64,000 nt of DNA from Gyromitra esculenta (taxonomy: Eukaryota > Ascomycota > Pezizomycetes > Pezizales > Discinaceae), in NCBI GenBank assembly GCA_038503075.1, contig JBCAML010000023.1, forward strand, positions 620,001-684,000, read 5' to 3'. Below are positions 32,614 to 56,767 of this stretch, one piece after another (the stretch's first letter is position 1; each line of letters opens with the position of its first letter). Made by a program: the position numbers and the translations under genes. The notes beneath the pieces are model-generated. The model saw only the letters and a program-made list of their open reading frames with translations, ran no database searches and had not been told where the DNA came from.

Positions 32614-33037
32614 TTTCATGGATTGACTTAGGGATGAGTCGTGGTTCGGATGGTTGTACAATTTCTTTGTTTTTCGGTTATGTTTTGGGTTATTATAATA
32701 ATGTCTTTGTGTTTCGGTTGTTGCCGGGTTATTGTTGGTGCTATCGAAAAGCGGGGTATTTAAGGAAGGATTTTGGTTGCTTTCGTTTCTCTTCTTCTTC
32801 TTCTTTCCTTAAGCAACGTTCTCGTTACCTTCTGCTGTAGCTATCAAATACCATCTCGGTTCTACCTCAGAACTCTCGCTGTTGCTGTCCACCTCGCTGC
32901 ACCTATCTCGCCTTGAGATAGGCCCTCGTAGAACTTGTAGAAACGCTGCACTCTTCGAACGTGTTGTACCCTTGATTAAGTAGCACTGCTCACCTTCAGG
33001 GATACTGAAGGGCTTAACTCGAGGCTCAACCGTGAGA
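32614..33037 (+). repeat. 5' LTR of gypsy A
   Basis: 424 bp, starting TTTCATGG and ending CCGTGAGA. It contains a TATA-like TATTTAA (32757-32763) and, about 50 bases on, a C/T-rich tract ending in CTTAAGCAACG (from 32808), the probable transcript start. The 3' half has the inverted motif CCTTCAGGGATACTGAAGGG. Confidence 0.9.
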
Positions 33038-33039
33038 TT

Positions 33040-33048
33040 ACGTTGCTT
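33040..33048 (+). promoter_or_regulatory. Putative self-priming primer-binding site (A)
   Basis: Two bases after the LTR comes ACGTTGCTT, an exact complement of AAGCAACGT at 32811-32819 inside the LTR, near the expected RNA 5' end. No TGG-type tRNA 3'-end complement is seen here. Compare Tf1 of fission yeast, which primes from its own RNA 5' end. Confidence 0.55.
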
Positions 33049-33230
33049 CCTCCATCTACACCTTCTACCCCAAAACGCCCTCTCATGGGAATCACCGCTT
33101 GGATTCACCAATCCCTTTTAAACATCTTTCCTTGTTTGACACTGAGAAAGCCCCTCGCTGAAGTCACCCCTGAGTGGCTTGATCAAGAATACCTACAAAA
33201 AAACACCTCACCCCGTCCACCAACCTCATC

Positions 33231-34553
33231 ATGAGCTCATCCGCTCCCGCTGCCCCCTCCATGGAAGGAATTGCTGTTTCTTCCCCACGCTTCCCCACAC
33301 GAGAAGCCTTCGCCCAAGCCATCAGAGAAGATCCCTCGGAACACTACAACTTTCTCCGAGATCTCTACCAGGCGCTAGAGAACCAAATCGATGTCCTCCA
33401 GGAAAGCGAACGGGAAAATGAGGTGAAACTCAACACTGCTCGGATCCAGACCGATAACGCCCTTCGCCATGCTACCGAGCAGGATCAACGGGTCGCCGAG
33501 ACCGCAAACCTGATTGCCCGGTTACGACAAGAAAGAAACGAAGCCCGGATCCTTAGTCAAGCATCTCCTGCTCCACCCAACCTTGCAGCTACCCCACCTC
33601 CGCCAATGAACTCTCACCGTTCAGAACGCATGCCGGACCCGGAAAAGTTTAACGGATCCAGGACCAAACTTCCCGGATTCATCCTCCAACTGCACTCCAA
33701 GTTAACTGTTAACCGAGACCGCTTCGCAGACGAAACTACAATGATCCTCTATACCATCAATCGGCTAGAAGGAGCAGCACTGGAACAGGTCCGCCACACT
33801 GTCCTCCCCTCTGGCCTCACCACCTGGACTAGTGCGGAACAACTTATCGCCGCCCTAGAGACTGCCTTTGGAGATCCAGACCCAACCGGCACTGCCCGAC
33901 GAGAACTCCACCAGCTCCGCCAAGGTAAGCGTGATTTTTCAGCTTACCTAGCCGACTTTCAGAGGATCATGGGACAGTTGAACTTCGATGAGAACTCCAA
34001 GATGGACGCACTGGAACATGGAATGTCGGAGGAACTAACGGAAGCTATGGTATTCGCGCCCATCGCCCCGGCCAACCTTCAGGAAATGACCCTCACTCTC
34101 ACTCGACTCGACAATCGCATTCGAGCCCGTAAGGCAGAGAAAAGAGGAAATGCTTGCGACAGCATGGGCCAATTCAATGCTCCCGCCGCCTTCACCCCCG
34201 CTTCCTCCTTTACCCCAGGAGGACTAGCTCCCATGGACCTATCATTCGGCCGCACCAGCAATACCTCTCGCCCCCCCCAAGATCAAAGATATACAACGGT
34301 CAAAGGAAGAAGGAAGCTGTCAGAGGAAGAAAAGCAGTGGCGACGTTCCACCGGAAAATGTATGTTTTGCGCCGGCCCTGATCACTCCTATGCCAATTGC
34401 CCTTCCGCTCCCAAGAAGCCAACCATGAGAGGAGCTCTCACTGCCCCTCCTGCAACCCGCACGCCCCCAGCCTCCTCCTTACCGCCACCCCCACTCCCAC
34501 CTCAATTTTTCGCCCTGGAAGATGCCAGCGCCTCCAATGAGGCTTTAAACTAG
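33231..34553 (+). CDS. Gag polyprotein of gypsy A
   Basis: 440 aa, uninterrupted. A predicted coiled coil (residues about 45-110) precedes a Pro-rich linker. A retrotransposon Gag domain (around LPGFILQLHSKL to GKRDFSAYLADFQRIMGQL) follows, then a basic stretch, and one CCHC zinc knuckle CMFCAGPDHSYANC near the C-terminus. The protein ends ALN with a stop directly behind the slippery sequence TTTAAAC. A second in-frame Met ten codons in (MEGIAV) matches the start of the Gag of element B and may be the true start. Gag forms the particle and packages RNA. Confidence 0.85.
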   Translation: MSSSAPAAPSMEGIAVSSPRFPTREAFAQAIREDPSEHYNFLRDLYQALENQIDVLQESERENEVKLNTARIQTDNALRHATEQDQRVAETANLIARLRQERNEARILSQASPAPPNLAATPPPPMNSHRSERMPDPEKFNGSRTKLPGFILQLHSKLTVNRDRFADETTMILYTINRLEGAALEQVRHTVLPSGLTTWTSAEQLIAALETAFGDPDPTGTARRELHQLRQGKRDFSAYLADFQRIMGQLNFDENSKMDALEHGMSEELTEAMVFAPIAPANLQEMTLTLTRLDNRIRARKAEKRGNACDSMGQFNAPAAFTPASSFTPGGLAPMDLSFGRTSNTSRPPQDQRYTTVKGRRKLSEEEKQWRRSTGKCMFCAGPDHSYANCPSAPKKPTMRGALTAPPATRTPPASSLPPPPLPPQFFALEDASASNEALN

Positions 34554-34587
34554 TTTTACCGAAGTCGACCAGTGACCCTGCTTCGGT
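34544..34587 (+). promoter_or_regulatory. -1 frameshift signal, gag-pol junction (A)
   Basis: In gag frame the codons read GCT TTA AAC TAG, giving the canonical slippery heptamer T TTA AAC (34544-34550) right before the stop. Downstream, ACCGAAG (34558-34564) pairs with CTTCGGT (34581-34587). The pol frame is -1 and has no ATG near its start. The stem differs in sequence but not in position from those of B and C. Confidence 0.8.
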
Positions 34588-34790
34588 TCCTTTTTCTTTA
34601 CCTTTGTCTGCGTTTTCCATTTCAGGTTTTTCGGTGTCGGATATGTGCGTGGAGGATCAGTTAGATGGGGAACACTTTGTTATTTCTTGTAGCATTTCCC
34701 ATAATAATAAAATCATCAAAACCCACACACTATTGGACACTGGAGCCTCAGGATTCACTTTCATTGACAAAGACTTTGCGAGTCACCACG

Positions 34791-35209
34791 TTTCACGGAT
34801 TAGAGATAGGGTTAGGACTGGGTGCGACGGTTGTTATGGATTTTGGATCTTTTAGTATAATCCTATTGTAGTTCGGTTGCGTTTTAGGCTGCTGTCGGGT
34901 TGTTGATTGTGTAACGGGAAAGCGGGGTATTTAAGCGAAGGATTTCGGACGTTCCTGTTTTCTCTTTCTTTCTTTCCTTAAGCAACGTTCTCGTTTACCT
35001 TCTCTTGTAATTGATAAAACACTATCTCGGTTCTACCTCAGAACCCTCGCTGTCGCTGTCCACTTCGCTGCACTTATCTCGCCTTGAGATAGACCCCTCG
35101 TAGAACTTGTAGAAACACTGCACTCCTCGAACGTGTTAGTACCTCGCTTAAGTAGCACTGCTCACCTTCAGGGATACTGAAGGGCTTAACGAGGGACTGA
35201 ACCGTGAGA
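34791..35209 (+). repeat. 5' LTR of gypsy B
   Basis: 419 bp, TTTCACGG...CCGTGAGA. TATA-like TATTTAAG near 34929 is followed by CTTAAGCAACG at about 34977. Matches the 3' LTR 40244-40662. Confidence 0.92.
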
Positions 35210-35211
35210 TT

Positions 35212-35220
35212 ACGTTGCTT
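35212..35220 (+). promoter_or_regulatory. Putative self-priming primer-binding site (B)
   Basis: ACGTTGCTT two bases after the LTR is an exact complement of AAGCAACGT at 34980-34988 within the LTR, as in element A. Confidence 0.55.
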
Positions 35221-35283
35221 CCAACATCTACACCTTCTACCACCTGATCCACACAAAGCACACCTACCCCCATCGACTCCACC

Positions 35284-36576
35284 ATGGAAGGAGCCGCCGT
35301 CGCCACAAAACGCTTCCCCACCAGGGAAGCTTTCGCCCAAGCCTACAGAGACGATCCCGCGGAGCTCTATAATGAACTCAGGGACCTCAACCAAGCCCTG
35401 GAGGACCAAATCGATGTCCTCCAGGAAAGCGAGCGAGAAACTGAGGTCAAACTCAATACAGCTCGCATTCAAACCGATAACGCCCTCCGCCATGCCACAG
35501 AACAAGACCAACGAGTTACCGAGGCTGCAAGTCTAATCGCTCGGTTGCGACAAGAGCGAAACGAAGCTCGAGCCGCTACCCAAGCCCCTCCCGCTCCACC
35601 TAATCTTACGGCCACCCCACCTCCGCCAACAAATTCTCACCGATCAGAACGGATGCCAGATCCTGAGAAATTTGATGGATCTCGAACTAAACTCCCCGGC
35701 TTTATCCTACAACTACGCTCTAAACTCACTGTCAACAGGGACCGCTTTGCCAACGAGACCACGATGATCCTCTATACTATCAACCGTCTAGAAGGAGCAG
35801 CGCTGGAACAAGTTCGGCACACCGTTCTCCCCTCAGGCCTCACCACCTGGACCAGTGCAGAGCAACTTATCACCGCCCTGGAAACTGCCTTTGGCGATCC
35901 AGACCCAACCGGCACCGCTCGACGGGAACTCCATCAACTCCGTCAAGGGAAACGTGATTTTTCGGCTTATCTAGCCGACTTTCAAAGAATCATGGGTCAG
36001 TTAAATTTCGACGAGAACTCTAAGATGGATGCCCTGGAACATGGCATGTCGGAAGAACTCAAGGAAGCAATGGTGTTTGCACCCATCGCCCCTGCTAACC
36101 TCCCGGAGATGATTCTTACCCTTACCCAATTGGACAACCGAATCCGAGCTCGCAAGGCAGAGAAACGGGGAAACGCCAGAGATAATATGGGTCAATTCAG
36201 TGCCCCCGCCGCCTTCACCCCTGCTTCCTCCTTTACCCCAGGAGGACTAGCCCCTATGGACCTATCTTTCGGACGTACCAGCAATCTTTCTCGCCCTCCT
36301 CAAGACCAACGGTACACAATGGTCAACGGACGAAGAAAGCTTTCGGAGGAAGAGAAACAATGGCGCCGCGCCACTGGAAAGTGTATGTTCTGTGCTGCCC
36401 CGGATCACTCCTACGCCAATTGCCCCTCTGCTCCCAAAAAACCTACGATGAGAGGAGCCCTCACCGCCCCACCTGCTAACCGCACGCCCCCGGCCTCTTC
36501 CCTACCGCCGCCACCTCTCCCGCCTCAATTTTTTGCCCTAGAGTCTGCAAGCGCCTCAAGCGAGGCTTTAAACTAG
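35284..36576 (+). CDS. Gag polyprotein of gypsy B
   Basis: 430 aa, intact, starting MEGAAV in the context CACCATGG. Same layout as Gag of A: coiled coil (about residues 40-100), Gag core, C-terminal knuckle CMFCAAPDHSYANC. Ends in ALN before TAG, at the frameshift site. Most differences from the A copy are conservative. Confidence 0.87.
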   Translation: MEGAAVATKRFPTREAFAQAYRDDPAELYNELRDLNQALEDQIDVLQESERETEVKLNTARIQTDNALRHATEQDQRVTEAASLIARLRQERNEARAATQAPPAPPNLTATPPPPTNSHRSERMPDPEKFDGSRTKLPGFILQLRSKLTVNRDRFANETTMILYTINRLEGAALEQVRHTVLPSGLTTWTSAEQLITALETAFGDPDPTGTARRELHQLRQGKRDFSAYLADFQRIMGQLNFDENSKMDALEHGMSEELKEAMVFAPIAPANLPEMILTLTQLDNRIRARKAEKRGNARDNMGQFSAPAAFTPASSFTPGGLAPMDLSFGRTSNLSRPPQDQRYTMVNGRRKLSEEEKQWRRATGKCMFCAAPDHSYANCPSAPKKPTMRGALTAPPANRTPPASSLPPPPLPPQFFALESASASSEALN

Positions 36577-36611
36577 TTCAACCAAGGTCGATCAGTGACC
36601 CTACCTTGGTT
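36567..36611 (+). promoter_or_regulatory. -1 frameshift signal, gag-pol junction (B)
   Basis: GCT TTA AAC TAG in gag frame (heptamer 36567-36573). After a 6-nt spacer, AACCAAGGT (36580-36588) pairs perfectly with ACCTTGGTT (36603-36611), a 9-bp stem with a 14-nt loop containing GTGACCCT. Pol frame is -1 and stays open across the gag stop. Confidence 0.85.
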
Positions 36612-39600
36612 TCAAATTTCTTACCTTTATCTGCATTTTCTATTTCTGGGTTTTCGGTTTCTGGTATAAGCGTGGAGGATCAATTGGATGGGGAACACTT
36701 TGTAGTAGCATGCAAGATTTCCCATAGCAATAAAGTTATAAACACCCACGCTTTACTAGATACCGGGGCCTCAGGATTTGCATTTATTGATAAAAAATTC
36801 GCGAGTCACCATTCTCTCCCTCTCACCCCTCTAAAAATACCCCGACAACTTGAAGTTATCGATGAACGCCCTGTTGCATCCGGAGATATCACCCACATCG
36901 CTAAACTTAACTTATCCATTGAAAATCACCAAGAGCAAGCGCCCTGTTTTGTAACTCAATTAGGTCACTACCCCTTAGTCTTGGGAATACCATGGATGAA
37001 ATATCACGATGTGCATCTACAGTTCGCCGATAAACGCATTGAGTTTAATTCTAAACTCTGCACCACCCACTGCGCCCCTCACTCCCCTATCGTCATCTCC
37101 CCATCAATCCCTGCTCCCCCCAGATTAAATATGTCTTTTATCGGCGCTGCTAGCTTTAGGACCCTCACTAGGAAACGTGCCCATCAAGCCTATGCCATGT
37201 CCCTCTACGAGATAAACAAACTCATAGACAATAAGACAACTAAGGAAGAATGGAAGTCTAGAATCCCCGCTGAGTACCATGACTTCCTGGACATGTTCGA
37301 CAAAGCAAAAGCACAAGGACTACCCCCACGCCGCCCCTACGACCATAAGATACAACTAATGGAAGGGAAAGATGCACCATTCGGACCACTTTATGGAATG
37401 TCCCGAGAGGAACTGATCGTCTTGAAGAAATATATTGAGGATAATCTCGAGAAAGGATTCATTCGTGCTAGTTCCTCTCCAGCTGGATCCCCCGTCCTAT
37501 TCGTCAAAAAAGCTGACGGGTCATTACGACTCTGCGTGGACTACCGAGGCCTTAATGCCATTACCGTCAAAGATCGTTATACCTCTCCCCTCATCCGCGA
37601 AACCCTAGACCGGCTTGCAAAAGCACAATGGTATACCAAACTAGACCTTCGTGACGGATACCACCAAGTGCGCATTGCAGAAGGAGACGAATGGAAGACC
37701 GCCTTTCGCACGCGGTACGGCCTTTATGAATACCAGGTTATGCCATTCGGTTTAACAAATGCCCCCGGAACATTCCAACGATTTGTGAATGATTGCCTCA
37801 CGGAATACCTGGACATATTCTGTACCGCCTATCTAGATGACATTCTCATCTACAGCAATACCCTCGCGGAGCATCAGATTCACGTCCGCAAAATCCTCCA
37901 AATTCTCAAAGACAACGATATCCTGTTAAAACCGGAGAAATGCGAGTTTGAGGTACAAACTACTAAGTACCTTGGTCTCATCCTCACCCCTGATGGTATC
38001 AGAATGGACGAGGAGAAACTTAAAGCCGTTCGGGAATGGGGGACACCAAAGAGTGTAAAAGATGTTCAAGCATTTTTAGGTTTTGCCAATTTCTACCGTC
38101 GATTCATCCTAGGATTCTCCAAACTTGCTACCCCGCTCACCGCCCTCACTAAGAAAGGCATTGTCTTCGAGTGGACTGTTGAAGCTGATATAGCTTTCGA
38201 AAACCTCAAACATGCCTTTACCACCGCCCCAATCCTTATCCATTTCGATCCAGATAAGAAAATCATTGTGGAAACCAATGCTTCAGACTTCGTGTCCGGA
38301 GGAGTCCTATCCCAGTACGATGATAACGGTGTCCTACACCCGGTGGCCTTCTTCTCAAAGAAACATTCCCCGGCGGAATGCAACTATGAGATTTACGATA
38401 AAGAGCTGTTGGCCATTATCCGTGTTTTCGAAGAATGGCGTCCAGAGCTTGAGGGATCAAAACATCCTATTGACGTGATCAGTGACCATAAGAATCTCGA
38501 ATACTTTATGAGCACTAAACAACTCAATCGACGTCAAGCTAGATGGGCCGAGTACCTATCCCGTTTTGATTTTGTAATAACGTATCGACCTGGAAGTCAA
38601 GGAGGAAAACCGGATGCACTCACTAGAAGATCAGGAGATCTTCCCAAGGAAGGGGATGAACGATTGGCACATCAAAGCCAAGTGATATTAAAAAAGGAGA
38701 ACATCGATCCTAAGCTAAGTTTGTTGTCGGCTTCTTTGTCAAATGAAGCCGCTGAATTGGATGCCCCCCTAAAGAAACTTTTCCAAGAAGGATTTATCGC
38801 TGACAAGTTTCCCGAAGAAATACTCAAGGCACTAAGGAATAAAGATCAACAATCAAAAAAGATCACCTTAAGTGAGTGCACAGAAGAAAACGGAAGGCTA
38901 TGTTATTGAGGGTGCATCTACGTCCCCAACCTGGATGCTCTCCGCTTGGAATTAATCCGAAGACACCATGATAATCCTGCAGCAGGCCACCCAGGACGAG
39001 ACAAGACCTTCGAACTCCTTGCCAGAAGCTTTTACTGGCCAAAGATGAGAGAATCAATCAAGCGATATGTACGTAACTGCCATATCTGCCAGAAAGCGAA
39101 GCCAGTCACCCAGCGAACCCAAGGAGTTCTCCGTCCCCTACCTATTCCAAACCGTCCCTGGCAAGAGATCTCGATGGACTTTGTGACAGGTCTCCCAGAA
39201 TCAAACGGCTATGATGCTATTATGGTAATAGTCGATCGACTATCGAAAATGCGACATCTCATCCCGTGCAATACTACCGTCAATTCCCGAGACATCGCAG
39301 ATCTCTACCTCCAGCATGTTTGGAAACTTCACGGCTTACCGACACATATCACCTCCGATCGAGGGACACAGTTCACTGCCCATTTTTGGAAGGAACTCTG
39401 CCAGCGTCTAGGAATTCAAGCCAGGATGTCAACAGCCTTCCACCCTGAGACCGATGGACAAACGGAACGATTGAATGCGGTTATGGAGCAATACCTACGC
39501 TCCTATGTGTCTTATCAACAAGGAGACTGGAGTAAATGGTTACCAATGGCCGAATTCTCTGCGAATAACCAAGAATCAGCTAGTACCAAGGTCTCGCCCT

Positions 39601-40256
39601 TTTTCGCAAACTACGGTTACCATCCCCGCTTCGATACTTCTGTTATTGCCTTAACAGCCACTGCCCAAAGCCTAGATTCCTCGACCTTTGCAACTACGAT
39701 GCAAGAATTGTATGACTACCTCCGAACCCAAATTCGAACAGCTCAGGACATTCAAGAAACCTCGACTAATAAACACCGAACACCGGCCCCTGCTTATCAA
39801 GTCAATAACCAGGTCTTTGTATCCATGAAGAATATCCGAACAGTTCGAAATGCTCGGAAGCTCGACTGGAAATGGATGGGACCCTATCCGATAAAAAAGA
39901 TAGTATCGCCGTTTGCCTACGAAATTGATCTTCCACCATCAGTCAAGTATCATCCCGTTTTCCACATCTCGCTCCTTAAACCTGCCGCCGATGATCCTCC
40001 CCCAGGACAAATAATACCCCCTCCACCTCCAATTGTAGTTAATGAACAGGAGGAATATTTTATTGAGAAAATCCTCGAACAAAGGATACATCGCGGACAA
40101 CAACAATACCTTGTTGAATGGACGGGATATGCTCATCCTACCTGGGAACCTGCCGAAGATCTTCAGGACACTGCTGCCCTTGATACCTTTTTAACTACCA
40201 GTCCTAAGGTTCACAGGGGCTCACGCTTGAGACGGGGGGCTACTTTCACGGATTAG
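36573..40256 (+). pseudogene. Pol of gypsy B with one stop codon
   Basis: Protease (LLDTGASG), RT (YLDDILIYS), RNase H, integrase (HHD...GHPGRDK...CHICQKA, MDFVTGLP, SDRGTQF, TERLN) and a C-terminal chromodomain (YFIEKILEQRI...YLVEWTGYAHPTWEP) follow in one frame. A TGA at 38907-38909 replaces an Arg codon (CGA-type in the A copy) between RNase H and integrase. The first RNase H Asp (TDAS in A) is Asn, codon AAT at 38277-38279. Both are C:G to T:A transitions. The integrase triad is intact, opposite to the situation in A. Confidence 0.92.
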
Positions 40257-40662
40257 AGATAGGGTTAGGACTGGGTGCGACGGTTGTTATGGATTTTGGA
40301 TCTTTTAGTATAATCCCATTGTAGTTCGGTTGCGTTTTAGGCTGCTGTCGGGTTGGTGATTGTGTAACGGGAAAGCGGGGTATTTAAGCGAAGGATTTTG
40401 GACGTTCCTGTTCTCTCTTTCTTTCTTTCCTTAAGCAACGTTCTCGTTTACCTTCTCTTGTAATTGATAGAACACTATCTCGGTTCTACCTCAGAACCCT
40501 CACTGTCACTGTCCATTTCGCTGCACTTATCTCGCCTTGAGATAGACCCCTCGTAGAACTTGTAGAAACACTGCACTCCTCGAACGTGTTAGTACCTCGC
40601 TTAAGTAGCACTGCTCACCTTCAGGGATACTGAAGGGCTTAACGAGGGACTGAACCGTGAGA
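40244..40662 (+). repeat. 3' LTR of gypsy B
   Basis: 419 bp, preceded by a polypurine tract (GAGACGGGGGG). Ends CCGTGAGA directly before the target duplication CCACG. Confidence 0.92.
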
Positions 40663-43600
40663 CCACGCCCTACCCCTTCTTCCCCTAAAAAATCACCGAC
40701 AACTTGAGGTAATAGACGGCCGCCCAGTCTCATCAGGAGACATTACCCATATTGCCAATATTCACCTCTCTATCCAACAACACCAAGAACAAGCCCCCTG
40801 CTTCGTCACTCAACTAGGACACTACCCCCTCGTTCTTGGAATCCCATGGATGAGTTATCACGATGTCCAACTTCACTTCGCCCAAAAACGCATTGAGTTT
40901 AATTCTAAACTCTGCACCACCCACTGTGCACCACATTCCCCCACCATATCCACCTCAGCCATTACAGTACCTTCCCGCTTTAATATGTCGTTTATTGGTG
41001 CCGCAAGTTTTAGAACCCTTACTCGAAAACGTACCTCTCAGGCCTATGCTATGTCTCTTTACGAGATAAATAGGATCCTAGAGAAAACAACGACCAAGGA
41101 AGAATGGAGAGCAAGGATACCCGCGGAATATCATGATTTTTTGGACATGTTTGACAAAAAGAAAGCACAAGGATTACCCCCCCGCCGTTCCTATGACCAT
41201 AAGATACAGCTAATGGAAGGGAAGGATGCACCGTTTGGACCCCTCTACGGAATGTCAAGAGAAGAACTCATTGTCCTCAAAAAATATATTGAGGATAACC
41301 TAGAGAAAGGCTTCATTCGCGCCAGTTTTTCCCCTGCCGGGTCTCCCGTCCTCTTCGTGAAAAAGGCCGATGGATCATTAAGATTGTGCGTGGACTACCG
41401 TGGCCTTAATGCGATCACTGTCAAAGACCGTTATACGTCGCCCCTCATCCGAGAAACCCTGGACCGTCTAGCAAAAGCACAATGGTACACCAAACTAGAT
41501 CTACGCGACGGTTACCATCAAATACGCATCGCCGAAGGGGATGAATGGAAGACAGCCTTCCGCACTCGTTATGGTTTATATGAATATCAGGTCATGCCCT
41601 TTGGCCTAACCAACGCTCCCGGAACTTTTCAACGCTTCGTGAATGATTGTCTTACAGAGTATCTGGACATCTTCTGCACGGCGTACCTGGACGATATCCT
41701 TATTTACAGTAATACCTTCGCCGAACATCAAACCCACGTTCGCAGAGTCCTCCAAACGCTCAAAGACAATAACATCTTGCTAAAACCAGAAAAATGCGAG
41801 TTCCAGGTACAAACCACTAAATACCTCGGACTTATTCTTACCCCTGATGGCATAAAGATGGACGAGGAGAAACTCAAGGCCGTCCGGGAATGGGGAACCC
41901 CAAAAAGCGTAAAAGACGTTCAGGCATTCTTAGGCTTTGCAAATTTTTATCGTCGATTTATTCTGGGATTCTCAAAGCTTGCTGCCCCCCTTACCGCCCT
42001 TACCAGAAAAGGCATCACCTTTGAATGGTCTGTCGAAGCTGACATAGCTTTCGAAAACCTAAAACACTCCTTCACCACGGCCCCAATCCTTATCCACTTT
42101 GATCCTGATAAAAAAATCATCGTGGAAACCGATGCCTCGGATTTCATATCAGGGGGAGTCCTATCCCAATACGACGATGCTGGAATCCTGCACCCGGTAG
42201 CCTTCTTTTCAAAGAAACACTCACCAGCTGAGTGCAATTACGAAATCTACGACAAGGAGCTACTTGCCATCATACGAGTCTTTGAGGAATGGCGTCCGGA
42301 ATTGGAAGGTTCAAAACACCCAATTGACGTCATTAGTGATCATAAAAACCTTGAGTACTTTATGAGTACCAAGCAACTCAACCGCCGTCAAGCTAGATGG
42401 GCTGAATACCTATCGCGTTTTGATTTTGTGATCACGTATAGACCAGGAAGCCAAGGGGGAAAACCGGATGCGTTGACCAGGAGATCAGGAGATCTCCCCA
42501 AGGAAGGGGATGAACGATTAGCACATCAGAGCCAGGTGGTGCTAAAGAAGGAAAATCTTGACCCTAAGCTAAGTTTGTTGTCGGCTTCTTTATCAAACGA
42601 AGCCGCTGAATTGGACGCCCCCCTAAAAAAGCTATTTGCAGAAGGATATATCGCTGACAAGTTTCCTGAAAAGATCCTCCTAGCGTTAAGGAATAAGGAC
42701 CAACAATCCAAGGAGATTACCTTAAGCGAGTGCAAGGAGGAAAATGGAAACCTCTATTACCGAGACTGTATCTACGTTCCAGACTTTACCCCCCTCCGCC
42801 TTGAATTGATCAAGAAACACCATGATGCCCCTGCCACAGGCCATCCAGGACGTGATAAAACCTTTGAACTCCTTGCTAGAAGGTTCTATTGGCCCAAGAT
42901 GAGGGAGTCGATCGGACAATATGTCCGTAACTGTCATATCTGCCAGAAGGCGAAACCAGTTACCCAACGTACCCAAGGAGTTCTCCGTCCCCTACCCATT
43001 CCTAACCGCCCATGGCAAGAAATCTCTATGTATTTCGTTACCGGCCTCCCTGAATCAAATGGCTATGATGCTATTATGGTAGTAGTCGACCGACTGTCCA
43101 AAATGCGCCATCTTATCCCTTGTAATACTACCGTCAACTCCAGAGATATAGCTGATCTATATCTACAACATGTCTGGAAATTACATGGGTTACCTACGCA
43201 TATTACATCAGACCGAGGTACCCAATTTACAGCCCATTTCTGGAAGGAATTGTGTCAACGCCTTGGGATTCAGGCCAGAATGTCTATTGCTTTCCACCCT
43301 GAGACAGACGGGCAGACGGAGAGACTAAATGCGGTTATGGAACAGTACCTACGATCTTATGTATCTTATCAACAAGAGGACTGGAGTAACTTGTTACCTA
43401 TGGCCGAGTTCTCAGCAAATAATCAGGAATCTGCGAGTACCAAAGTTTCCCCTTTCTTTGCTAACTATGGGTACCATCCTCGTTTCGATACTACTCTCCT
43501 CCCAACCCAAGCGACCCTCGGGATCTTTGCCTTGTTTAGTCAAACAATGCAGGAACTCTATAATCATCTACGAACGCAAATAAGGACGGCCCAAGATATT

Positions 43601-44103
43601 CAAGAAACGGCTACGAATAGACACCGTATACCTGCTCCAGCTTACCGAGTCGATGACCATGTCTTCATTTCAATGAAGAACATTAGAACTGCCCGTAATG
43701 CTAGAAAGTTGGATTGGAAATGGATGGGACCCTACCCGATTAAGAAGATGGTCTCTCCTTTTGCCTACGAAGTTGACCTTCCATCCTCGGTTAAGTACCA
43801 CCCTGTCTTTCATGTTTCTTTATTGAAACCTGCGGCCCATGATGCTCTTCCCGGACAAATCATTCCTCCCCCGGCGCCTGTTGTTGTCAACGACCAAGAA
43901 GAATATTATATCGAGAAAATCTTGGACCAACGGACATATCGTAAGAAACAACAGTACCTCGTTGAATGGACCAGATATGCTCACCCTACCTGGGAACCCG
44001 CTGAAGACCTAGCAGATACTTCGGCACTGGAAAAGTTTTTAACTATCCCGACCTTAACTACGCCCAGTGTTCGCAGGAGCTCACGCTTGAAGGGGGGAGC
44101 TAC

Positions 44104-44526
44104 TTTCATGGATTGACTTAGGGATGAGTCGTGGTTCGGATGGTTGTACAATTTCTTTGTTGTTCGGTTAGGTTTCGGGTTATTATAATAATGTCTTTGT
44201 GTTTCGGTTGTTGCCGGGTTGTTGTTGGTGCTACTGAAAAGCGGGGTATTTAAGGAAGGATTTTGGTTGCTTTCGTTCTTCTTCTTCTTCTTTCCTTAAG
44301 CAACGTTCTCGTTTACCTTCTGCTGTAATTGTCGAAATACTATATCAGTTCTACCTCAGAACTCTCGCTGTTGCTGTCCACCTCGCTGCACCTATCTCGC
44401 CTTGAGATAGGCCCTCGTAGAACTTGTAGAAACGCTGCACTCTTCGAACGTGTTGTACCCTTGATTAAGTAGCACTGCTCACCTTCAGGGATATTGAAGG
44501 GCTTAACTCGAGGCTCAACCGTGAGA
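44104..44526 (+). repeat. 3' LTR of gypsy A
   Basis: 423 bp, preceded by the purine run GAAGGGGGGAG. It starts TTTCATGG and ends CCGTGAGA directly before TGGAG and the resumed LINE sequence. Confidence 0.9.
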
Positions 44527-45365
44527 TGGAGTGGGTGATATCCATAGCGTGCTAGTGGATTGAGTAATTGGTGAATGATTTGTGGATTGATTGCGTTAAT
44601 TCTTTTCCAGATACTGTAGGGTATAGTGTCGGGTCCAGGCGCAGACGAGTTGGAGGAAGAGCTAAGAGCTTTTGAAATCTCGTCAAAGTCAATTTCAATG
44701 AAGTCGCTGTGAGAGAAATAATTGGGTGCAGGAGGGTTTTCTTTTGGAGGAAAGAAGTGTTCGATAAGGGTAGAGGCAAGTTGTGAGGGGGAGTTGATAT
44801 TGGGAAGATTGGGAAAAGCTTCACTGTTGGAGGAGGTTTTGAGTCTTTTAGCGGCCCAGATGTCTGAGGGAGATGCAGAAGAAAGGAAGGAGTTGCAATG
44901 ATTCCTTTTACATCGAGCGATTTCGTGAAAATAGGCATATTTGGCCTTTTTAACCTTCTCTGATGGAGGGGCTTTTAGGCCACGAAATTTAGATCTTTGA
45001 GATCTGTCGACCGAGTGAAAAATTCTTCGAAGTTCAGATAGGAGGGGCGTCCACCATTTTTTGGACCATATCGATGGTCTTTTTATGGGGGTGCAGGAGG
45101 TGAGCGGGATGGTGACGAGGTTTAGAGATTCATGGAACCATACATCGAGATTTGGGAGTGGTGAAGGGGCGGGGATTTTTAGGTTTTTGATGAGGGGTGA
45201 GAGTTTCTTCCAGTCTGTTTTAGACCAGTCTGGAGAGGGTTTTGAGGTATAAAATTTTCGGGTGGAGAGATGGATGGAAATGGGAATGTGGTCAGAGCCT
45301 GTGGAGGGTAAGCTAGCATTCCATTTAGTAATAAATGGAAGGATGTGTGAATTGCCGAAGCTGAG

Positions 45366-50951: not shown

Positions 50952-51362
50952 TCTCAAGGAGCGAGATCCTCGTCAAGCTCTCGGGTATCCCCCGAGATAA
51001 GCAGTGCTACTTGAACGAGAAACTAACGACAGGAGAGTGTGCGGGGATTCTACAGGCTCTACCAATGGCTCAAGTTATGATGACTTGAGGACGGCGACGG
51101 CGAAAGATTGCGAGGTGTAATCTAAGTTTGTATTCGTGAGATGTAGTGAGTGTACAATAGAAGACGTTGCTTAAAGAAAGAAGAAGGAAAAGTACAAGAT
51201 GAGGGGGAATCCCTTCGCTTATATACCACGTTCCAACCCTTTCGATGACAAAGACATGACTCATTATAACGAAACACTCATGGAAGCACAAAGAACAACA
51301 ACGAAACCTAACAACCGTGTACCCCTGTTCCTAACCGATTACCATAACACCCATCCATGAAA
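50952..51362 (-). repeat. 3' LTR of gypsy C
   Basis: 411 bp; on the plus strand TCTCAAGG...CCATGAAA. Preceded, on the element strand, by a polypurine tract (TATGAGGGGGGGGGCTAC region, 51363-51385). Confidence 0.93.
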
Positions 51363-51374
51363 GTAGCCCCCCCC

Positions 51375-54300
51375 TCATAGCTGTGAGCTCCTGCGAACAC
51401 TAATCACTCCTTCCCTTGGTTTCTCCGGATATTGTTGATGGAAAGAATCTACAGCTTCCGTCTCTTCGTGGTACTCCGCAGGTTCCCAGGTGGGTAGTGC
51501 GTAGCCAGTCCATTCGACCAAGTATTGAAGTTTTCCGTGGTATAAACGGGAGTCTAGAATAGCTTCAACAAGGTATTCCTCGTGGTCATTAACTTGAACT
51601 GGTGGGGGCGGCGTAATAATCTGCCCGGGGAGTGGGTCGATGGGGGCTGCTTTGATCAACGAAACGTGGAACACAGGGTGATACTTCATTGATCTTGGGA
51701 GGTCAATTTCGTAGGCATAAGCTGAAATAGCACGTTTCACCGGGAAAGGGCCACTCCATTTCCAATCCAACTTCCTAGAATTCCGTGTTGTCCTCATGTT
51801 CTTCATCGACACAAACACTTCGTCCTTTTCCTTGAACAATGGAGCGGGGGTACGGTGTCGATTTGTACTCGACTCGAAAATATCTTGGGCCGTCCTCATC
51901 TGTACTCGGAGGAAGTCTCTGAGTTCTTCCATCTTAAAGGCGAAACTGTCAGCATCGAGGGTCTGAGGAGAGCGGTCATTAGGGACGATTGAGGTATCGA
52001 AGCGAGGGTGGTAGCCGTAGTTCGCAAAGAATGGCGTTGCCTTAGTACTTGCGGACTCCTGGTTGTTGGCAGCGAATTCAGCAATGGGTAACCATTTTGA
52101 CCAGTCATCTTGTTGATAAGAAACATAACAACGGAGATATTGTTCCATTACAGCGTTGAGACGTTCAGTTTGTCCATCGGTTTCTGGGTGGAAGGAGGTA
52201 GACATGCGGGCGGCAATATTTAAACGCTGACAGAGGTGCTTCCAGAATCTTGCGGTGAACTGTGTCCCTCTATCAGAAGTAATATGAGAGGGAAGTCCAT
52301 GGAGTTTCCAAACATTCTGGAGGTATAGCTCGGCAGTTTGTTCAGCGTTAATAGTAGTACTACACGGGACAAGATGCCGCATCTTCGAAAGTCGATCCAC
52401 GATGACCATAATGGCGTCAAAGCCATTAGATTCCGGGAGACCAGTGACGAAGTCCATCGATAATTCTTCCCAGGGGCGGTTGGGAATCGGGAGTGGTTTT
52501 AGAACGCCATGGGTACCGAGAGTGCTTGGTTTTGCTCGTCGGCAAATATGGCAATTCCGGGTATATCGTCCAATATATTCCCTCATCTTTGGCCAATAAA
52601 AACCTCTTGAGATAAGTTCAAAGGTTTTTTCACGTCCTGGGTGACCGGCGGAGGGGGCATCATGGTGTCGTTGTAGGATGAGGAGGCGAAGAGGGTCGTG
52701 GTCGGGGATATAAAGTCTTTGTCGGTAGAAGAGGCGGCCATTCATCTCGGTACAATCGCCTAAGGTAATTTCCTTGGATTGTCGTTCACTGTTCCTAAGT
52801 GCTAAGAGGATTTTTTGTGGGAACGGGTCAGCGTTATATCCATGGTTCATTAGGGTTTCAAGGGTGGCATCCAATTCAGCGGGTTCATTTAGTAAAGAAC
52901 CCGAAAACAAACTCAGCTTGGGATCCAAATTCTTTTCCTTCAGGATTACTTGGTGTTGGTGTCGTAGTCTTTCATCCCCTTCTTCAGGGAGATCTCCTGA
53001 TCTCCGAGTCAATGCGTCCGGTTTTCCCCCTTGTACTCCTGGTCTGTACGTAATGACAAAGTCGAAACGTGAAAGGTATTCCGCCCATCTAACCTGTCTT
53101 CGGTTCAGTTGTTTGGTGGTCATAAAATATTCCAAATTTTTATGATCTGTGATGACGGAGATGGGGAATTCAGATCCTTCGAGCTCAGGGCGCCATTCTT
53201 CAAAGCAACGGATAATGGCTAGCAACTCCTTGTCGTAAATTTCGTAGTTGCACTCAGCGGGTGAGTGCTTCTTGGAAAAGAATGCTACGGGGTGAAGGAC
53301 GTCGTTATCATCGAGTTGGGAGAGGACTCCGCCGGAGACGAAATCAGAGGCATCAGATTCCACAAAGATTTTCTTTCGAGGATCGAAGTGGATGAGTACA
53401 GGGGCCTTGGTGAAGGCATCTTTCAGTGCTTCAAAAGCGAGTTCTGCTTCAACTGTCCATTCGAAAACGATACCTTTCTTTGTAAAAGCGGTAAGGGGTG
53501 CCGCTAGGCGAGAGAATCCTAGGATAAATCGTCGATAGAAATTCGCAAAGCCGAGGAAGGCTTGAACATCTTTGATACACTTTGGGCGATTCCAGTCTCG
53601 TACAGCTTTAAGTTTCTCTTCGTCCATCTTAATTCCCTCAGGTGTGAGAATCAATCCGAGGTATTTTATGGATTGGACGTGAAATTCACACTTCTCAGGT
53701 TTGAGGAGTATGTTATTGGCTTTCAAGGCGTCGAGGACTTGTCGGACGTGGATTTTATGTTCGGCGAGGGTATCACTATAGATAAGGATATCGTCGAGGT
53801 AGGCCGTACAAAAGAGGTCCAAGTATTCTCGGAGAGAATCATTGACAAAGCGTTGGAAGGTACCGGGGGCATTGGTGAGGCCGAAAGGCATAACCATATA
53901 TTCGTAAAGGCCGTAACGAGTCCTAAAGGCGGTCTTCCATTCTTCTCCTTCTGCGATGCGGATTTGGTGAAATCCATCTCGAAGGTCTAGTTTGGAATAC
54001 CATTGTGCTTTAGCGAGGCGGTCGAGGGTTTCTTTAACGAGCGGGGAGGTATATCGGTCTTTGACGGTAAGGGCATTAAGGCCTCGGTAGTCTACACAGA
54101 GGCGTAGAGATCCGTCGGGTTTTGCGGCGAAGAGGACGGGGGAGCCTGCAGAGGAAGAACTAGCACGGATAAAGCCCTTTTCTAGGTTGTCCTCGATATA
54201 CTTTTTAAGGACTAGAAGTTCGTCCCGTGACATACCATAGAGGGGGCCGAATGGTGGTTCCTTACCCTCCTGAAGGGTAATACGATGGTCGTAGGGGCGA

Positions 54301-55055
54301 CGGGGGGGGAGTCCTTGGGCCTTTGCTTTATCAAACATGTCCAGGTATTCGTGATACTCAGCGGGTATTCTTTGTCTCCATTCCTCTTTAGTGGTCTTAC
54401 TATCAAGGACTTTATTTATTTCGTATAGAGACATTGAATAGACCTGAGTACCTTTTTTCCGGGCGAGCATGCGGAAACTAGCGGCTCCGATAAAGGCGGC
54501 GTTAAGTTTGGCTGGAGGCGGGATGGCGGCGGCGGAAACGATAGGTTGTTTGGGGGCACAGTGGGTGGTGCAGAACTCAGAGTTGAATTCAATGCTTTTG
54601 TTGGCAAATTGTAAGTGGACGTCATGGAGGTTCATCCACGGGATACCAAGCACTAGGGGGTAGTGTCCTAGTTTGGTGACGAAGAAGGGAGCTTTCTCAT
54701 TATGCTGTTGAATAGAAAGTTCCAAGTGACAAAGATTGGTAATATCTCCCGAGGCAATTGTTCGGCCGTCAATGACTTCTAATTGGCGAGGGGTTTTGAG
54801 GGGAGATAATGGTAGGGAATGGTGACGCACAAAGTTTTCATCGATGAAAGCGAACCCTGAGGCTCCTGTGTCAAGAAGTGCGTGTGTTTTTATGACTTTA
54901 TTTTGGTGGGAAAGGCTACATGAAACTACAAAATGTTCCCCATCCAAATTATCCTCCACGCACACATCCGACACAGAAAACCCAGAGATAGAAAACGCTG
55001 ACAAAGAAGAAAAAGAAACCAGAGCAGGGTCACAAGGCGACTCTGGTTGAACTAG
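51375..55055 (-). CDS. Pol polyprotein of gypsy C
   Basis: About 1225 aa if read by frameshift from gag. No ATG opens the frame; the first candidate start at 55004 is TTG. Order: protease LLDTGASG, RT (VDYRGLNALTVKDRYTSPLV, YLDDILIYS), RNase H (SDASDFVSGG, TDHKNLEYF), integrase zinc finger (RHHD...GHPGREK...CHICRRA), DDE core (MDFVTGLP, SDRGTQF, TERLN) and chromodomain (YLVEAILDSRL...YLVEWTGYALPTWEPAE). All catalytic positions look intact (RNase H has Ser-Asp-Ala-Ser where A has Thr-Asp-Ala-Ser). The chromodomain marks a chromovirus; in related elements it steers integration to marked chromatin. Confidence 0.93.
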   Translation of the reverse strand, partial: LVQPESPCDPALVSFSSLSAFSISGFSVSDVCVEDNLDGEHFVVSCSLSHQNKVIKTHALLDTGASGFAFIDENFVRHHSLPLSPLKTPRQLEVIDGRTIASGDITNLCHLELSIQQHNEKAPFFVTKLGHYPLVLGIPWMNLHDVHLQFANKSIEFNSEFCTTHCAPKQPIVSAAAIPPPAKLNAAFIGAASFRMLARKKGTQVYSMSLYEINKVLDSKTTKEEWRQRIPAEYHEYLDMFDKAKAQGLPPRRPYDHRITLQEGKEPPFGPLYGMSRDELLVLKKYIEDNLEKGFIRASSSSAGSPVLFAAKPDGSLRLCVDYRGLNALTVKDRYTSPLVKETLDRLAKAQWYSKLDLRDGFHQIRIAEGEEWKTAFRTRYGLYEYMVMPFGLTNAPGTFQRFVNDSLREYLDLFCTAYLDDILIYSDTLAEHKIHVRQVLDALKANNILLKPEKCEFHVQSIKYLGLILTPEGIKMDEEKLKAVRDWNRPKCIKDVQAFLGFANFYRRFILGFSRLAAPLTAFTKKGIVFEWTVEAELAFEALKDAFTKAPVLIHFDPRKKIFVESDASDFVSGGVLSQLDDNDVLHPVAFFSKKHSPAECNYEIYDKELLAIIRCFEEWRPELEGSEFPISVITDHKNLEYFMTTKQLNRRQVRWAEYLSRFDFVITYRPGVQGGKPDALTRRSGDLPEEGDERLRHQHQVILKEKNLDPKLSLFSGSLLNEPAELDATLETLMNHGYNADPFPQKILLALRNSERQSKEITLGDCTEMNGRLFYRQRLYIPDHDPLRLLILQRHHDAPSAGHPGREKTFELISRGFYWPKMREYIGRYTRNCHICRRAKPSTLGTHGVLKPLPIPNRPWEELSMDFVTGLPESNGFDAIMVIVDRLSKMRHLVPCSTTINAEQTAELYLQNVWKLHGLPSHITSDRGTQFTARFWKHLCQRLNIAARMSTSFHPETDGQTERLNAVMEQYLRCYVSYQQDDWSKWLPIAEFAANNQESASTKATPFFANYGYHPRFDTSIVPNDRSPQTLDADSFAFKMEELRDFLRVQMRTAQDIFESSTNRHRTPAPLFKEKDEVFVSMKNMRTTRNSRKLDWKWSGPFPVKRAISAYAYEIDLPRSMKYHPVFHVSLIKAAPIDPLPGQIITPPPPVQVNDHEEYLVEAILDSRLYHGKLQYLVEWTGYALPTWEPAEYHEETEAVDSFHQQYPEKPREGVISVRRSSQL

Positions 55056-55061
55056 TTTAAA
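55017..55061 (-). promoter_or_regulatory. -1 frameshift signal, gag-pol junction (C)
   Basis: On the minus strand TCT TTA AAC TAG in gag frame places the heptamer at 55061-55055. After a 6-nt spacer, AACCAGAG (55048-55041) pairs with CTCTGGTT (55024-55017), an 8-bp stem around a 16-nt loop containing GTGACCCTG. The pol frame is -1. Confidence 0.85.
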
Positions 55062-56299
55062 GACTCAACTGAGTCTGTTGCATCGAAAGCAGGAAAGCGA
55101 GGAGGGAGAGGCGGCGGAAAAACAGAAGGGGCTGGGGGCGCGGCGGCGGCGTTGGTGACTGCTCCCCTCATGGCGGGGCGCTTGGAGGCAGAAGGGCAGT
55201 TCGAGAAGATATGCCCCTCCCCGGCGCAGAACAAGCAACGATTGTTGGTTTGTCTCCAGGATTTTTCCTCAGGAGACAATTTTCTTCTTCCGTTTACTTG
55301 GACATATCGTTGTTCTGGGGCGGGGCGAGAGGTAGAGGTACGACCAAAAGAAAGATCCATGGGGACCAGTCCTCCAGGGGCGAAGGAGGAGGAGGCGGGG
55401 GTATAGGCGGCAGGGGGGGCGGCAGAGGCGGCGAATTGTCCCATGGTGTTGCGGGCGGCGTTTTTCTTCTCCTCCCTTCTTGCTCGGATTCGGTTATCTA
55501 GGCGGAGGAGGAAGGCGCAGAGAGAAACGAAGGTGGTGGGGAAGTCGGCAACTGTTACTACCGCTTCTTTTAACTCATCCGACATGCCGAACTCTAGAGC
55601 ATCGTTCTTAGCTGATTCATCGTAATTGAGGCGTCCCATGATACGTTGAAAGTCGGCGAGGTAGGCCGAGAAGTCTCGCTTCCCTTGTCGGAGTTGGTGT
55701 AATTCGCGACGAGCGGTACCGAGCGGGTCAGGATCGCCGAAGGCAGTTTCCAAGGCGGTGATTAGGTCGGCGGCGGAGTTCCAGGTGGTAGTTCCGTCAG
55801 GAAGGACGGAATGGCGAACTTGTTCGAGGGCGGCTCCCTCGAGACGGCTAATGGCATATAATACCATATTGTTGCTATTGGAAAATCGATCGGCGTTAAC
55901 CGAGAGCTTTGACCTGAGTTGCAAGACGAACCCGGGGAGCTTATCGCGAGACCCATTGAATTTATCTGGGTCGGGCATTTTGTCCGAGCGGCCTCCTTGA
56001 GTATGAGCGGGAGGGGGTGGCGGTGATGGTGCAGGAGGTGGGGGAGCGGCGTTTTGGAGACGGGCGATTTCTACTTCAGCTGCCTGCAATTGAGATTGGC
56101 AGGTATTAAATCTGGCCGTCATGTTGTTTCTTTCTTGAGTTACTTCCTCAAGTTGTAGGTCTGCGTATGTGAGGTTATCTACTCGCTGTTGGTAGTGCGA
56201 GCGGATTTCCTCATAGGCAGAGGCGAGGTCGGCATTGGCGGCGGCTTGGAAATTCTCAAAGGTGGGGAAGGTCCAGGGGGCGGGGGCGGGGTTGCTCAT
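55052..56299 (-). CDS. Gag polyprotein of gypsy C
   Basis: 415 aa from the ATG at 56299 (MSNPAPAP). The frame is open further upstream but without ATG and into the primer region. Coiled-coil N-terminal part (SAYEEIRSHYQQRVDNL, then EIARLQNA), Pro-rich linker, Gag core (LPGFVLQLRSKL to GKRDFSAYLADFQRIMGRL, nearly the same as in A/B), zinc knuckle CLFCAGEGHIFSNC. The N-terminal part differs strongly from A/B while the core is conserved. Confidence 0.9.
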   Translation of the reverse strand: MSNPAPAPWTFPTFENFQAAANADLASAYEEIRSHYQQRVDNLTYADLQLEEVTQERNNMTARFNTCQSQLQAAEVEIARLQNAAPPPPAPSPPPPPAHTQGGRSDKMPDPDKFNGSRDKLPGFVLQLRSKLSVNADRFSNSNNMVLYAISRLEGAALEQVRHSVLPDGTTTWNSAADLITALETAFGDPDPLGTARRELHQLRQGKRDFSAYLADFQRIMGRLNYDESAKNDALEFGMSDELKEAVVTVADFPTTFVSLCAFLLRLDNRIRARREEKKNAARNTMGQFAASAAPPAAYTPASSSFAPGGLVPMDLSFGRTSTSRPAPEQRYVQVNGRRKLSPEEKSWRQTNNRCLFCAGEGHIFSNCPSASKRPAMRGAVTNAAAAPPAPSVFPPPLPPRFPAFDATDSVESLN

Positions 56300-56345
56300 G
56301 GTGAGGTCGAGAGTGAATGGGTAGTGGTAGAGGGTGTAGATAAGG

Positions 56346-56354
56346 AAGCAACGT
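56346..56354 (-). promoter_or_regulatory. Putative self-priming primer-binding site (C)
   Basis: On the element strand ACGTTGCTT follows the 5' LTR after two bases and is an exact complement of AAGCAACGT in the LTR (56577-56569). Confidence 0.55.
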
Positions 56355-56356
56355 AA

Positions 56357-56767
56357 TCTCAAGGAGCGAGATCCTCGTCAAGCTCTCGGGTATCCCCCGA
56401 GATAAGCAGTGCTACTTGAACGAGAAACTAACGACAGGAGAGTGTGCGGGGATTCTACAGGCTCTACCAATGGCTCAAGTTATGATGACTTGAGGACGGC
56501 GACGGCGAAAGATTGCGAGGTGTAATCTAAGTTTGTATTCGTGAGATGTAGTGAGTGTACAATAGAAGACGTTGCTTAAAGAAAGAAGAAGGAAAAGTAC
56601 AAGATGAGGGGGAATCCCTTCGCTTATATACCACGTTCCAACCCTTTCGATGACAAAGACATGACTCATTATAACGAAACACTCATGGAAGCACAAAGAA
56701 CAACAACGAAACCTAACAACCGTGTACCCCTGTTCCTAACCGATTACCATAACACCCATCCATGAAA
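56357..56767 (-). repeat. 5' LTR of gypsy C
   Basis: 411 bp. On the element strand it has GTATATAAG as TATA-like box, followed by a C/T-rich tract and TTTAAGCAACGTC. Reads as identical to 50952-51362. Confidence 0.93.

What the first reader, a model, noticed from the sequence alone, without database searches (positions are those of the whole stretch)
34544..36611. Conserved -1 frameshift cassette (TTTAAAC + UAG + co-varying stem) at the gag-pol junction of three gypsy elements
In A (34544-34587), B (36567-36611) and C (55061-55017, minus) the gag frame reads N TTA AAC TAG with T before TTA, the classic U UUA AAC heptamer, immediately before the gag stop. pol is in the -1 frame in all three, is open across the stop, and has no ATG near its start (first candidates are TTG). 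A stem starts 4-6 nt after the stop-containing spacer: ACCGAAG/CTTCGGT in A, AACCAAGGT/ACCTTGGTT in B, AACCAGAG/CTCTGGTT in C. The arms change in a compensatory way while the loop keeps GTGACCCT. The heptamer type is known from coronaviruses; the co-variation is seen directly here.
Basis: partly seen in the sequence, partly recalled or inferred. Interest (0 to 1): 0.85.

Follow-up and report, generated by a model that had tools for sequence, protein, structure and literature searches.

The report
Frameshift switch in fungal-type retrotransposons
Three related jumping genes in this window carry a compact signal that very probably makes ribosomes slip back one base to join the Gag and Pol proteins; the mechanism is a known one, seen here with good comparative evidence and a possible extra control hairpin.

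Summary
In A, B and C the gag frame ends TTA AAC TAG after a T (heptamer U UUA AAC), pol is open in the -1 frame across the stop, and an 8-9 bp stem starts 6-7 nt after the heptamer. Of 75 junctions found by gag protein similarity, 74 keep the heptamer and 70 keep stem pairs 2-9. The stem covaries: 4 of 9 pairs change on both sides, six compensated double changes on a tree, null 14/2000, joint null 0/2000; a stricter all-column test found no pair below E 0.05. No pseudoknot common to the families was found. Splicing and AUG re-initiation fit poorly. The elements are chromodomain Ty3/gypsy with a Tf1/sushi-like self-primer; that group is already reported to use -1 frameshifting, so this is a new member of a known kind. 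No frameshifting was measured.

The parts
33183..34553 (+). A: gag open frame (stop to stop), ends TTA AAC TAG
   Evidence: (Retrotrans_gag, DUF4939)
34530..34543 (+). A: upstream hairpin GCCTC-CAAT-GAGGC abutting the slip site
34544..34550 (+). A: slippery heptamer T TTA AAC
34551..34553 (+). A: gag stop TAG
34558..34587 (+). A: 3' stem-loop, arms 34558-34565 and 34580-34587 (outermost pair of B and C not formed)
34541..34790 (+). A: start of pol in the -1 frame, interrupted by insertion of B
40668..44116 (+). A: remainder of pol after the nested B (RT, RNase H, integrase, chromodomain); that it belongs to A is inferred from the nesting
34791..40662 (+). B: whole element from 5' LTR (34791-35209) to 3' LTR (40244-40662), 5-bp target duplication CCACG
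35248..36576 (+). B: gag open frame
36553..36566 (+). B: upstream hairpin GCCTC-AAGC-GAGGC
36567..36573 (+). B: slippery heptamer
36574..36576 (+). B: gag stop TAG
36580..36611 (+). B: 9-bp 3' stem-loop, arms 36580-36588 and 36603-36611
36480..38909 (+). B: pol open frame (-1 relative to gag), ended by an in-frame stop; the same frame goes on to 40256
50952..56767 (-). C: whole element, LTRs 56357-56767 (5') and 50952-51362 (3'), target duplication TGTCA
55052..56377 (-). C: gag open frame
55062..55075 (-). C: upstream hairpin GACTC-AGTT-GAGTC
55055..55061 (-). C: slippery heptamer
55052..55054 (-). C: gag stop TAG
55017..55048 (-). C: 3' stem-loop, arms 55048-55040 and 55025-55017
   Evidence: in the longer fold of the C-type representative L033 another pairing wins
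51375..55064 (-). C: pol open frame, 1229 aa, -1 relative to gag

Best explanation
The junction is a programmed -1 ribosomal frameshift signal. Shown from sequence: gag ends in U UUA AAC UAG, pol is open in the -1 frame, and a conserved, covarying simple hairpin (8-9 bp, 14-nt loop) begins 6-7 nt after the heptamer. Inferred: when UUA is in the P site and AAC in the A site, the hairpin sits at the mRNA entrance and resists unwinding; both tRNAs re-pair one base back on UUU and AAA, and a minority of ribosomes read CUA GUU ... into Pol, giving Gag-Pol; the rest stop at UAG and make Gag. A second, 5-bp hairpin directly 5' of the slip site probably re-forms behind the ribosome and tunes the efficiency, more likely down than up.
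For: Heptamer, -1 pol frame and stop in all three. Heptamer in 74 of 75 gag-located and 30 of 30 pol-located loci. Stem: 97.2% of cells paired against 89.5% in shuffles (0/500) and at most 53.1% when slid. Six compensated double changes on a tree built without the stem or anything 5' of the stop's end; the observed pairing is reached by 14/2000 nulls, and jointly with the number of covarying pairs by 0/2000. In a scan of -60..+330 in 74 clustered junctions, 14 six-pair windows are paired in at least 85% of rows; the three from this stem have up to four pair types, the other 11 at most three and are rich in G-U. The 3' stem is in the minimum-energy fold of 13 of 15 representatives. U_UUA_AAC is named among the most shifty -1 heptamers with mammalian ribosomes (PMC5009743, passage). 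Tf1/sushi elements outside fission yeasts are said to use mainly -1 frameshifting (PMC10085805, passages).
Against: No translation data. An all-against-all covariation test in the style of R-scape gave no pair with E < 0.05 (best stem pair 0.085-0.135), because there are few independent changes. In one search two of five measures did not exceed shuffles (pairs with two-sided change 60/500; further pair types 495/500). L057 and L138 have an A-C mismatch in the stem although their pol frames are long and open. In representatives L008 and L033 (C type) a longer fold prefers other pairings. All DNA comes from one genome; 38 of the 143 loci were chosen by the heptamer (30 of them also by the bases ACC of the 5' arm), and the pol query began one codon before the heptamer.
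Confidence: 0.92

Rival explanations
1. Pol is made by termination and re-initiation, or by internal initiation, at a start codon after the gag stop.
For: 25 of 94 copies have a pol-frame ATG before the protease motif, 32-35 codons after the slip site; A has one too.
Against: 69 of 94 copies have no pol-frame ATG between slip site and protease motif; 134 of 141 have no ATG in any frame within 60 nt from the heptamer. It does not explain why the heptamer is kept in 74 of 75 gag-located junctions. Non-AUG starts were not tested.
Confidence: 0.03
2. A small intron across the gag stop joins gag to pol.
For: Gene predictors can place introns at such junctions, as annotated wrongly in Tcn1 (PMC10085805, passage). 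16 of 78 distinct junctions do have a phase-compatible 45-200 nt GTRNGY...YAG stretch.
Against: Only 22 of 78 distinct junctions have a GTRNGY donor within -200..+10, and the commonest donor position is shared by 14 of 78. Weak or more distant donors were not tested.
Confidence: 0.02
3. Frameshifting occurs on the heptamer, but the stem is not a stimulator: its covariation is an accident of a few family-level changes in a coding region.
For: Few independent events; the all-pair test is not significant; two measures do not exceed shuffles.
Against: Compensated types occur in small separate clades (AACCTGAG/CTCAGGTT in 2 rows, AACTGAAG/CTTCAGTT in 4); breaks are single rows except the outermost pair, lost in an A-type clade of 19 rows; the joint null is 0/2000.
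Confidence: 0.06
4. The upstream inverted repeat reflects gag C-terminal codons, not RNA structure.
For: It lies in coding sequence; the AACTGAAG family (4 rows) has only 3-4 of 5 pairs; 9 breaking events, and the number of covarying pairs is reached by 400/2000 nulls; on the ungapped alignment, where the loop-7 families are out of register, only 83.1% of cells pair and one pair covaries, a number that all 500 shuffles reach; swapped arms still give at least 4 of 5 pairs in 86%.
Against: 112 of 122 rows pair 5/5; shuffled 5' regions reach 5/5 in 3.2% and swapped arms in 14.6%, against 81.5% of 54 distinct 22-mers; synonymous sites inside the stem are conserved (GAG 0.00 against 0.31 expected, GCC 0.10 against 0.27) while those in the loop vary (TCA 0.37/0.50, AGC 0.35/0.33); observed pairing reached by 1/2000 nulls; in the fold of 11 of 15 representatives.
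Confidence: 0.4

Closest known systems
-1 frameshifting Tf1/sushi retrotransposons outside fission yeasts (PMC10085805; in the text seen, grasshopper is stated to use -1 and Tcn1 to have a programmed frameshift; the figure column for the others was not seen)
   Same: Ty3/gypsy retrotransposon with pol in the -1 frame after the gag stop; here also chromodomain and an LTR sequence complementary to the primer-binding site
   Different: Heptamers and structures of the named elements were not seen here (Gao et al. 2003 is not held), so sameness of the signal is untested
Coronavirus ORF1a/1b frameshift element
   Same: U UUA AAC heptamer (IBV, PMC5009743); 3' structure; in SARS-CoV an upstream attenuator hairpin (PMC3639245)
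   Different: A simple stem-loop here, with no common pseudoknot found; gag stop directly after the heptamer; retrotransposon, not RNA virus
SARS-CoV upstream attenuator hairpin (PMC3639245, passages)
   Same: Short hairpin next to the 5' side of the slip site; there, raising the spacing from 2 to 5 nt about halved the attenuation
   Different: Here 5 bp with a loop of 4 or 7 nt and 0 nt spacing; no activity measured; unrelated sequence
Fission yeast Tj1, Tcry1 and Tosmo elements
   Same: Related retrotransposons with a gag stop before pol
   Different: Those have pol in frame after TGA and are thought to use readthrough (PMC10085805); here pol is -1, so readthrough cannot give Pol

Membership tests
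-1 programmed ribosomal frameshift signal | X XXY YYZ heptamer in the frame of the upstream ORF | tested here: met
-1 programmed ribosomal frameshift signal | Downstream ORF in the -1 frame and open across the stop | tested here: met
-1 programmed ribosomal frameshift signal | RNA structure a short spacer after the heptamer | tested here: met
   6-7 nt; in the minimum-energy fold of 13 of 15 representatives
-1 programmed ribosomal frameshift signal | Structure conserved by compensatory change | tested here: met
   the all-pair test is not significant
-1 programmed ribosomal frameshift signal | Pseudoknot (common, not required) | tested here: inconclusive
   Loop-downstream helices of 5-9 bp against mean shuffle maxima of 6.1-7.0; L001 (9), L008 and L017 (8) exceed the mean; one downstream place pairs 6-9 bp with the loop in 9 of 14 representatives, not listed in L018 (B type), L019, L028, L033, L070; none in the conserved-helix list
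-1 programmed ribosomal frameshift signal | Measured -1 product | not testable with these tools
   no translation or proteome data
Tf1/sushi-type chromovirus (Ty3/gypsy) | Protease, RT, RNase H, integrase order with C-terminal chromodomain | tested here: met
   C (all) and the frame 40661-44116 taken as A's (RT to chromodomain); the second part of B's pol was not scanned
Tf1/sushi-type chromovirus (Ty3/gypsy) | Self-primer in the LTR complementary to the primer-binding site | tested here: met
   9-nt AAGCAACGT at 221-230 nt from the site in A, B and C; shuffled site mean 5.6-5.8, but up to 10-12 in 500
Tf1/sushi-type chromovirus (Ty3/gypsy) | Place in an RT-IN tree with named members | not tested
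   named element sequences were not at hand
Upstream -1 attenuator hairpin | Hairpin close to the 5' side of the slip site | tested here: met
   0 nt away, 5/5 pairs in 112 of 122 rows; -4.5 to -7.7 kcal/mol in the 11 of 15 representatives with 5/5 pairs
Upstream -1 attenuator hairpin | Lowers -1 frameshifting | not testable with these tools
   needs a reporter assay

The most novel reading that the evidence does not exclude
The slip site is held between two covarying hairpins: a 3' stimulator and a 5' attenuator that abuts the heptamer. Together they set the Gag:Gag-Pol ratio. The retrotransposon lineage has kept both through family divergence, so it carries a natural, minimal two-sided frameshift controller built from simple hairpins without a pseudoknot.
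Probability: 0.4. Interest if true: 0.6.

Novelty: new member of a known kind. Interest (0 to 1): 0.42.

Why it matters
About 290 or more junctions in one genome, in families with different but compensated stem arms, are a natural mutagenesis series for a simple-hairpin frameshift signal. If the upstream hairpin is a real attenuator, one can ask whether elements tune Gag-Pol with a brake as well as a stimulator. Practically, gag and pol of such elements are at risk of mis-annotation (false introns or split genes) unless the shift is recognised.

Tried and rejected
Pseudoknot: no loop-downstream helix of 6 bp or more shared by the families (one place pairs 6-9 bp in 9 of 14, so a long-range contact in some families is open); none in the conserved-helix scan of -60..+330. 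Readthrough of UAG: excluded, pol is not in frame. Splicing and AUG re-initiation: see rivals. Relatives in viral contigs: none confirmed. Rfam: no match in 32600-44600; C was not searched. Gag homologs elsewhere: of 13 proteins found, P0001 and P0003 end in LN as here; P0002, P0004 (Morchella sextelata), P0005 and P0009 (Podosphaera aphanis) end in FQ, P0010 in FH, the other six otherwise; so by protein ends this heptamer at the last two gag codons is not general in the wider group.
Full report
WHAT WAS CHECKED. The three junctions are as described. Gag of A (33183-34553), B (35248-36576) and C (55052-56377, minus) ends in Leu-Asn-stop, read TTA AAC TAG after a T. The pol frame is -1; in A and C it is closed by TGA one codon before the heptamer, so only the heptamer region can serve the shift; in B the overlap is 97 nt. 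Pfam gives Retrotrans_gag and DUF4939 for the three gags, RT and RNase H for the part of B's pol scanned, and RT, RNase H, integrase and chromodomain for C and for the frame 40661-44116.

WHAT THE ELEMENTS ARE. B (34791-40662, LTRs 97% alike over 300 nt) is inserted in A's pol with target duplication CCACG; A's pol is taken to go on at 40668. C (50952-56767) has LTRs that agree in 300 of 300 nt compared and target duplication TGTCA. In all three the site after the 5' LTR, TTACGTTGCTT, has a 9-nt complement AAGCAACGT inside the LTR at 221-230 nt distance; shuffled sites give a mean of 5.6-5.8 nt and a maximum of 10-12 in 500. Self-primers of this kind are named for fission yeast elements in PMC10085805; that they mark the Tf1/sushi group is recalled. 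The genome is 47.1 Mb in 23 contigs; the unnamed host looks fungal because the named gag relatives are from Morchella and Podosphaera.

COPY NUMBER. TTTAAACTAG: 588 against 169 for the reversed control. TTTAAACTAGTTNNACC: 290 against 0.

CONSERVATION IN COPIES NOT CHOSEN BY THE HEPTAMER. A gag protein of another species (P0004) listed 103 matches out of 825 first-look candidates; junctions of 75 of these were fetched as L069-L143. Heptamer 74 of 75; TAG 70, TAA 3, AAG 1, no junction in the stretch 1 (L111); stem pairs 2-9 all formed in 70 (misses L078, L097, L100, L111, L138). A C-type pol query listed 150 matches out of 715 candidates (the query begins one codon before the heptamer, a slight bias); 30 were fetched: heptamer 30, TAG 29, TAA 1, stem 29. 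The 38 loci chosen by the heptamer keep the stem in 34. Some places occur in more than one set.

THE 3' STEM. On 91 distinct rows, 97.2% of cells pair; 4 of 9 pairs have two-sided changes (C-G/U-A; A-U/G-C/U-A; A-U/G-C twice) and the innermost pair varies U-G/U-A/C-G. In favour: cells paired, double-change cells and covariation score are reached by 0 of 500 shuffles, and slid versions pair 22.6-53.1%. Not in favour: the number of pairs with two-sided change was reached by 60 of 500 shuffles and the number of pair types by 495. On a tree from 72 columns 3' of the stop without the stem, six double changes keep pairing, 11 other changes keep it and 14 break it; independent columns with the same number of changes reach the observed pairing in 14 of 2000 and both pairing and covarying pairs in 0 of 2000 (8 and 0 of 2000 with a tree that included 5' columns). 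An R-scape-like test over all column pairs gives the best stem pair E 0.085-0.135 and no pair below 0.05. Thirty of the loci had been picked with the bases ACC of the 5' arm fixed, which bears on pairs 2-4 only. In 15 representatives the minimum-energy fold of about 108 nt contains this stem in 13; in L008 and in the C-type L033 other pairings win. I take the stem as well supported but resting on few independent events.

CODING. Between clusters, synonymous difference is zero in TTA and AAC of gag (expected 0.55, 0.33; 28 of 63 clusters heptamer-picked) and in AGT GAC of the loop (expected 0.32, 0.27). So part of the loop is conserved beyond protein need, reason unknown. Loop-downstream helices: 5-9 bp against mean shuffle maxima 6.1-7.0 in 14 representatives; one place pairs 6-9 bp in nine of them; GTGAC/GTCAC, 5 bp, is present in all 14 without variation. 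None reaches the conserved-helix list. A long-range contact is therefore open, a family-wide pseudoknot not supported.

THE UPSTREAM HAIRPIN (not in the finding). The 14-17 nt directly before the heptamer fold as GCCTC/GAGGC (A, B), GACTC/GAGTC with loop 4 (C) or loop 7 (other families), GGCTC/GAGTC (L070, L071): 5 of 5 pairs in 112 of 122 rows. Four double changes keep pairing, five other changes keep it, nine break it; the null reaches the pairing in 1 of 2000 but the number of covarying pairs in 400 of 2000. The loop register was chosen as the better of two per row, which favours pairing a little. On the ungapped alignment, with loop-7 families out of register, 83.1% of cells pair and all 500 shuffles reach two of the five measures. 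Synonymous sites in the stem are conserved and those in the loop are not. One family (AACTGAAG stem, 4 rows) has only 3-4 pairs. A refolding hairpin close to a slip site lowers -1 frameshifting, more so when stable and near (PMC3639245, passages; PMC6321510, abstract and passages). [quoted passage not shown]

MECHANISM. Shown: frames, heptamer, spacing, covarying 3' stem. Inferred: tandem slippage of tRNA-Leu and tRNA-Asn, stimulation by the stem, tuning by the 5' hairpin.

NOVELTY. -1 frameshifting in Tf1/sushi elements outside fission yeasts is in print (PMC10085805, passages and part of one section), and recoding in LTR retrotransposons was surveyed in 2003 (as told in PMC5009743; the survey itself is not held). 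In ten search listings of an open-access library I saw no paper on this cassette or on a flanking hairpin pair in a retrotransposon; most subscription papers are not held. Hence a new member of a known kind, with one possibly new feature.

Noticed in passing
34643-34672 (+), 36666-36695 (+), 54933-54962 (-): A second stretch, 99-128 nt after the heptamer start (codons for VEDxLDGE), has low synonymous change (observed/expected about 0.35-0.55 in 6-codon windows) without a covarying structure in the scan. Unexplained.
   Followed up: partly
34786-40667: B is nested in A's pol with a 5-bp target duplication CCACG; its LTRs start TTTCACG and end CGTGAGA rather than TG...CA.
   Followed up: yes
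38907-38909: B's pol frame is interrupted by one in-frame stop; the same frame continues to 40256.
   Followed up: no
gag homologs P0002, P0004, P0005, P0009, P0010: Related gags in Morchella, Podosphaera and unnamed sources end in Phe-Gln or Phe-His instead of Leu-Asn, so they probably use another recoding site or arrangement.
   Followed up: partly
36595-36599 and 36805-36809 in B (+), same places in other families: Loop motif GTGAC has an invariant 5-nt complement GTCAC about 205 nt further on in 14 of 14 representatives; both lie in conserved codons, so this may be chance.
   Followed up: partly
about 217-226 nt after the heptamer start, e.g. L001, L008, L017: A stretch that pairs 6-9 bp with the hairpin loop in 9 of 14 representatives (L001 9 bp, L008 and L017 8 bp), rich in A-U and G-U. 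Not tested further.
   Followed up: no
58041-61511 (+): Pieces of a Ty1/copia element (Pol_BBD, gag_pre-integrs, RVT_2).
   Followed up: no
31300-32808 (-): Open frame with an RVT_1 reverse transcriptase domain beside A, on the other strand, probably a different retroelement.
   Followed up: no
16435-17919 (-): Open frame with a protein kinase domain, weakly like the fungal kinase family Pkinase_fungal.
   Followed up: no
L048, L086, L097, L138: In four copies the gag stop is TAA instead of TAG, so the stop is kept while its letters change.
   Followed up: no
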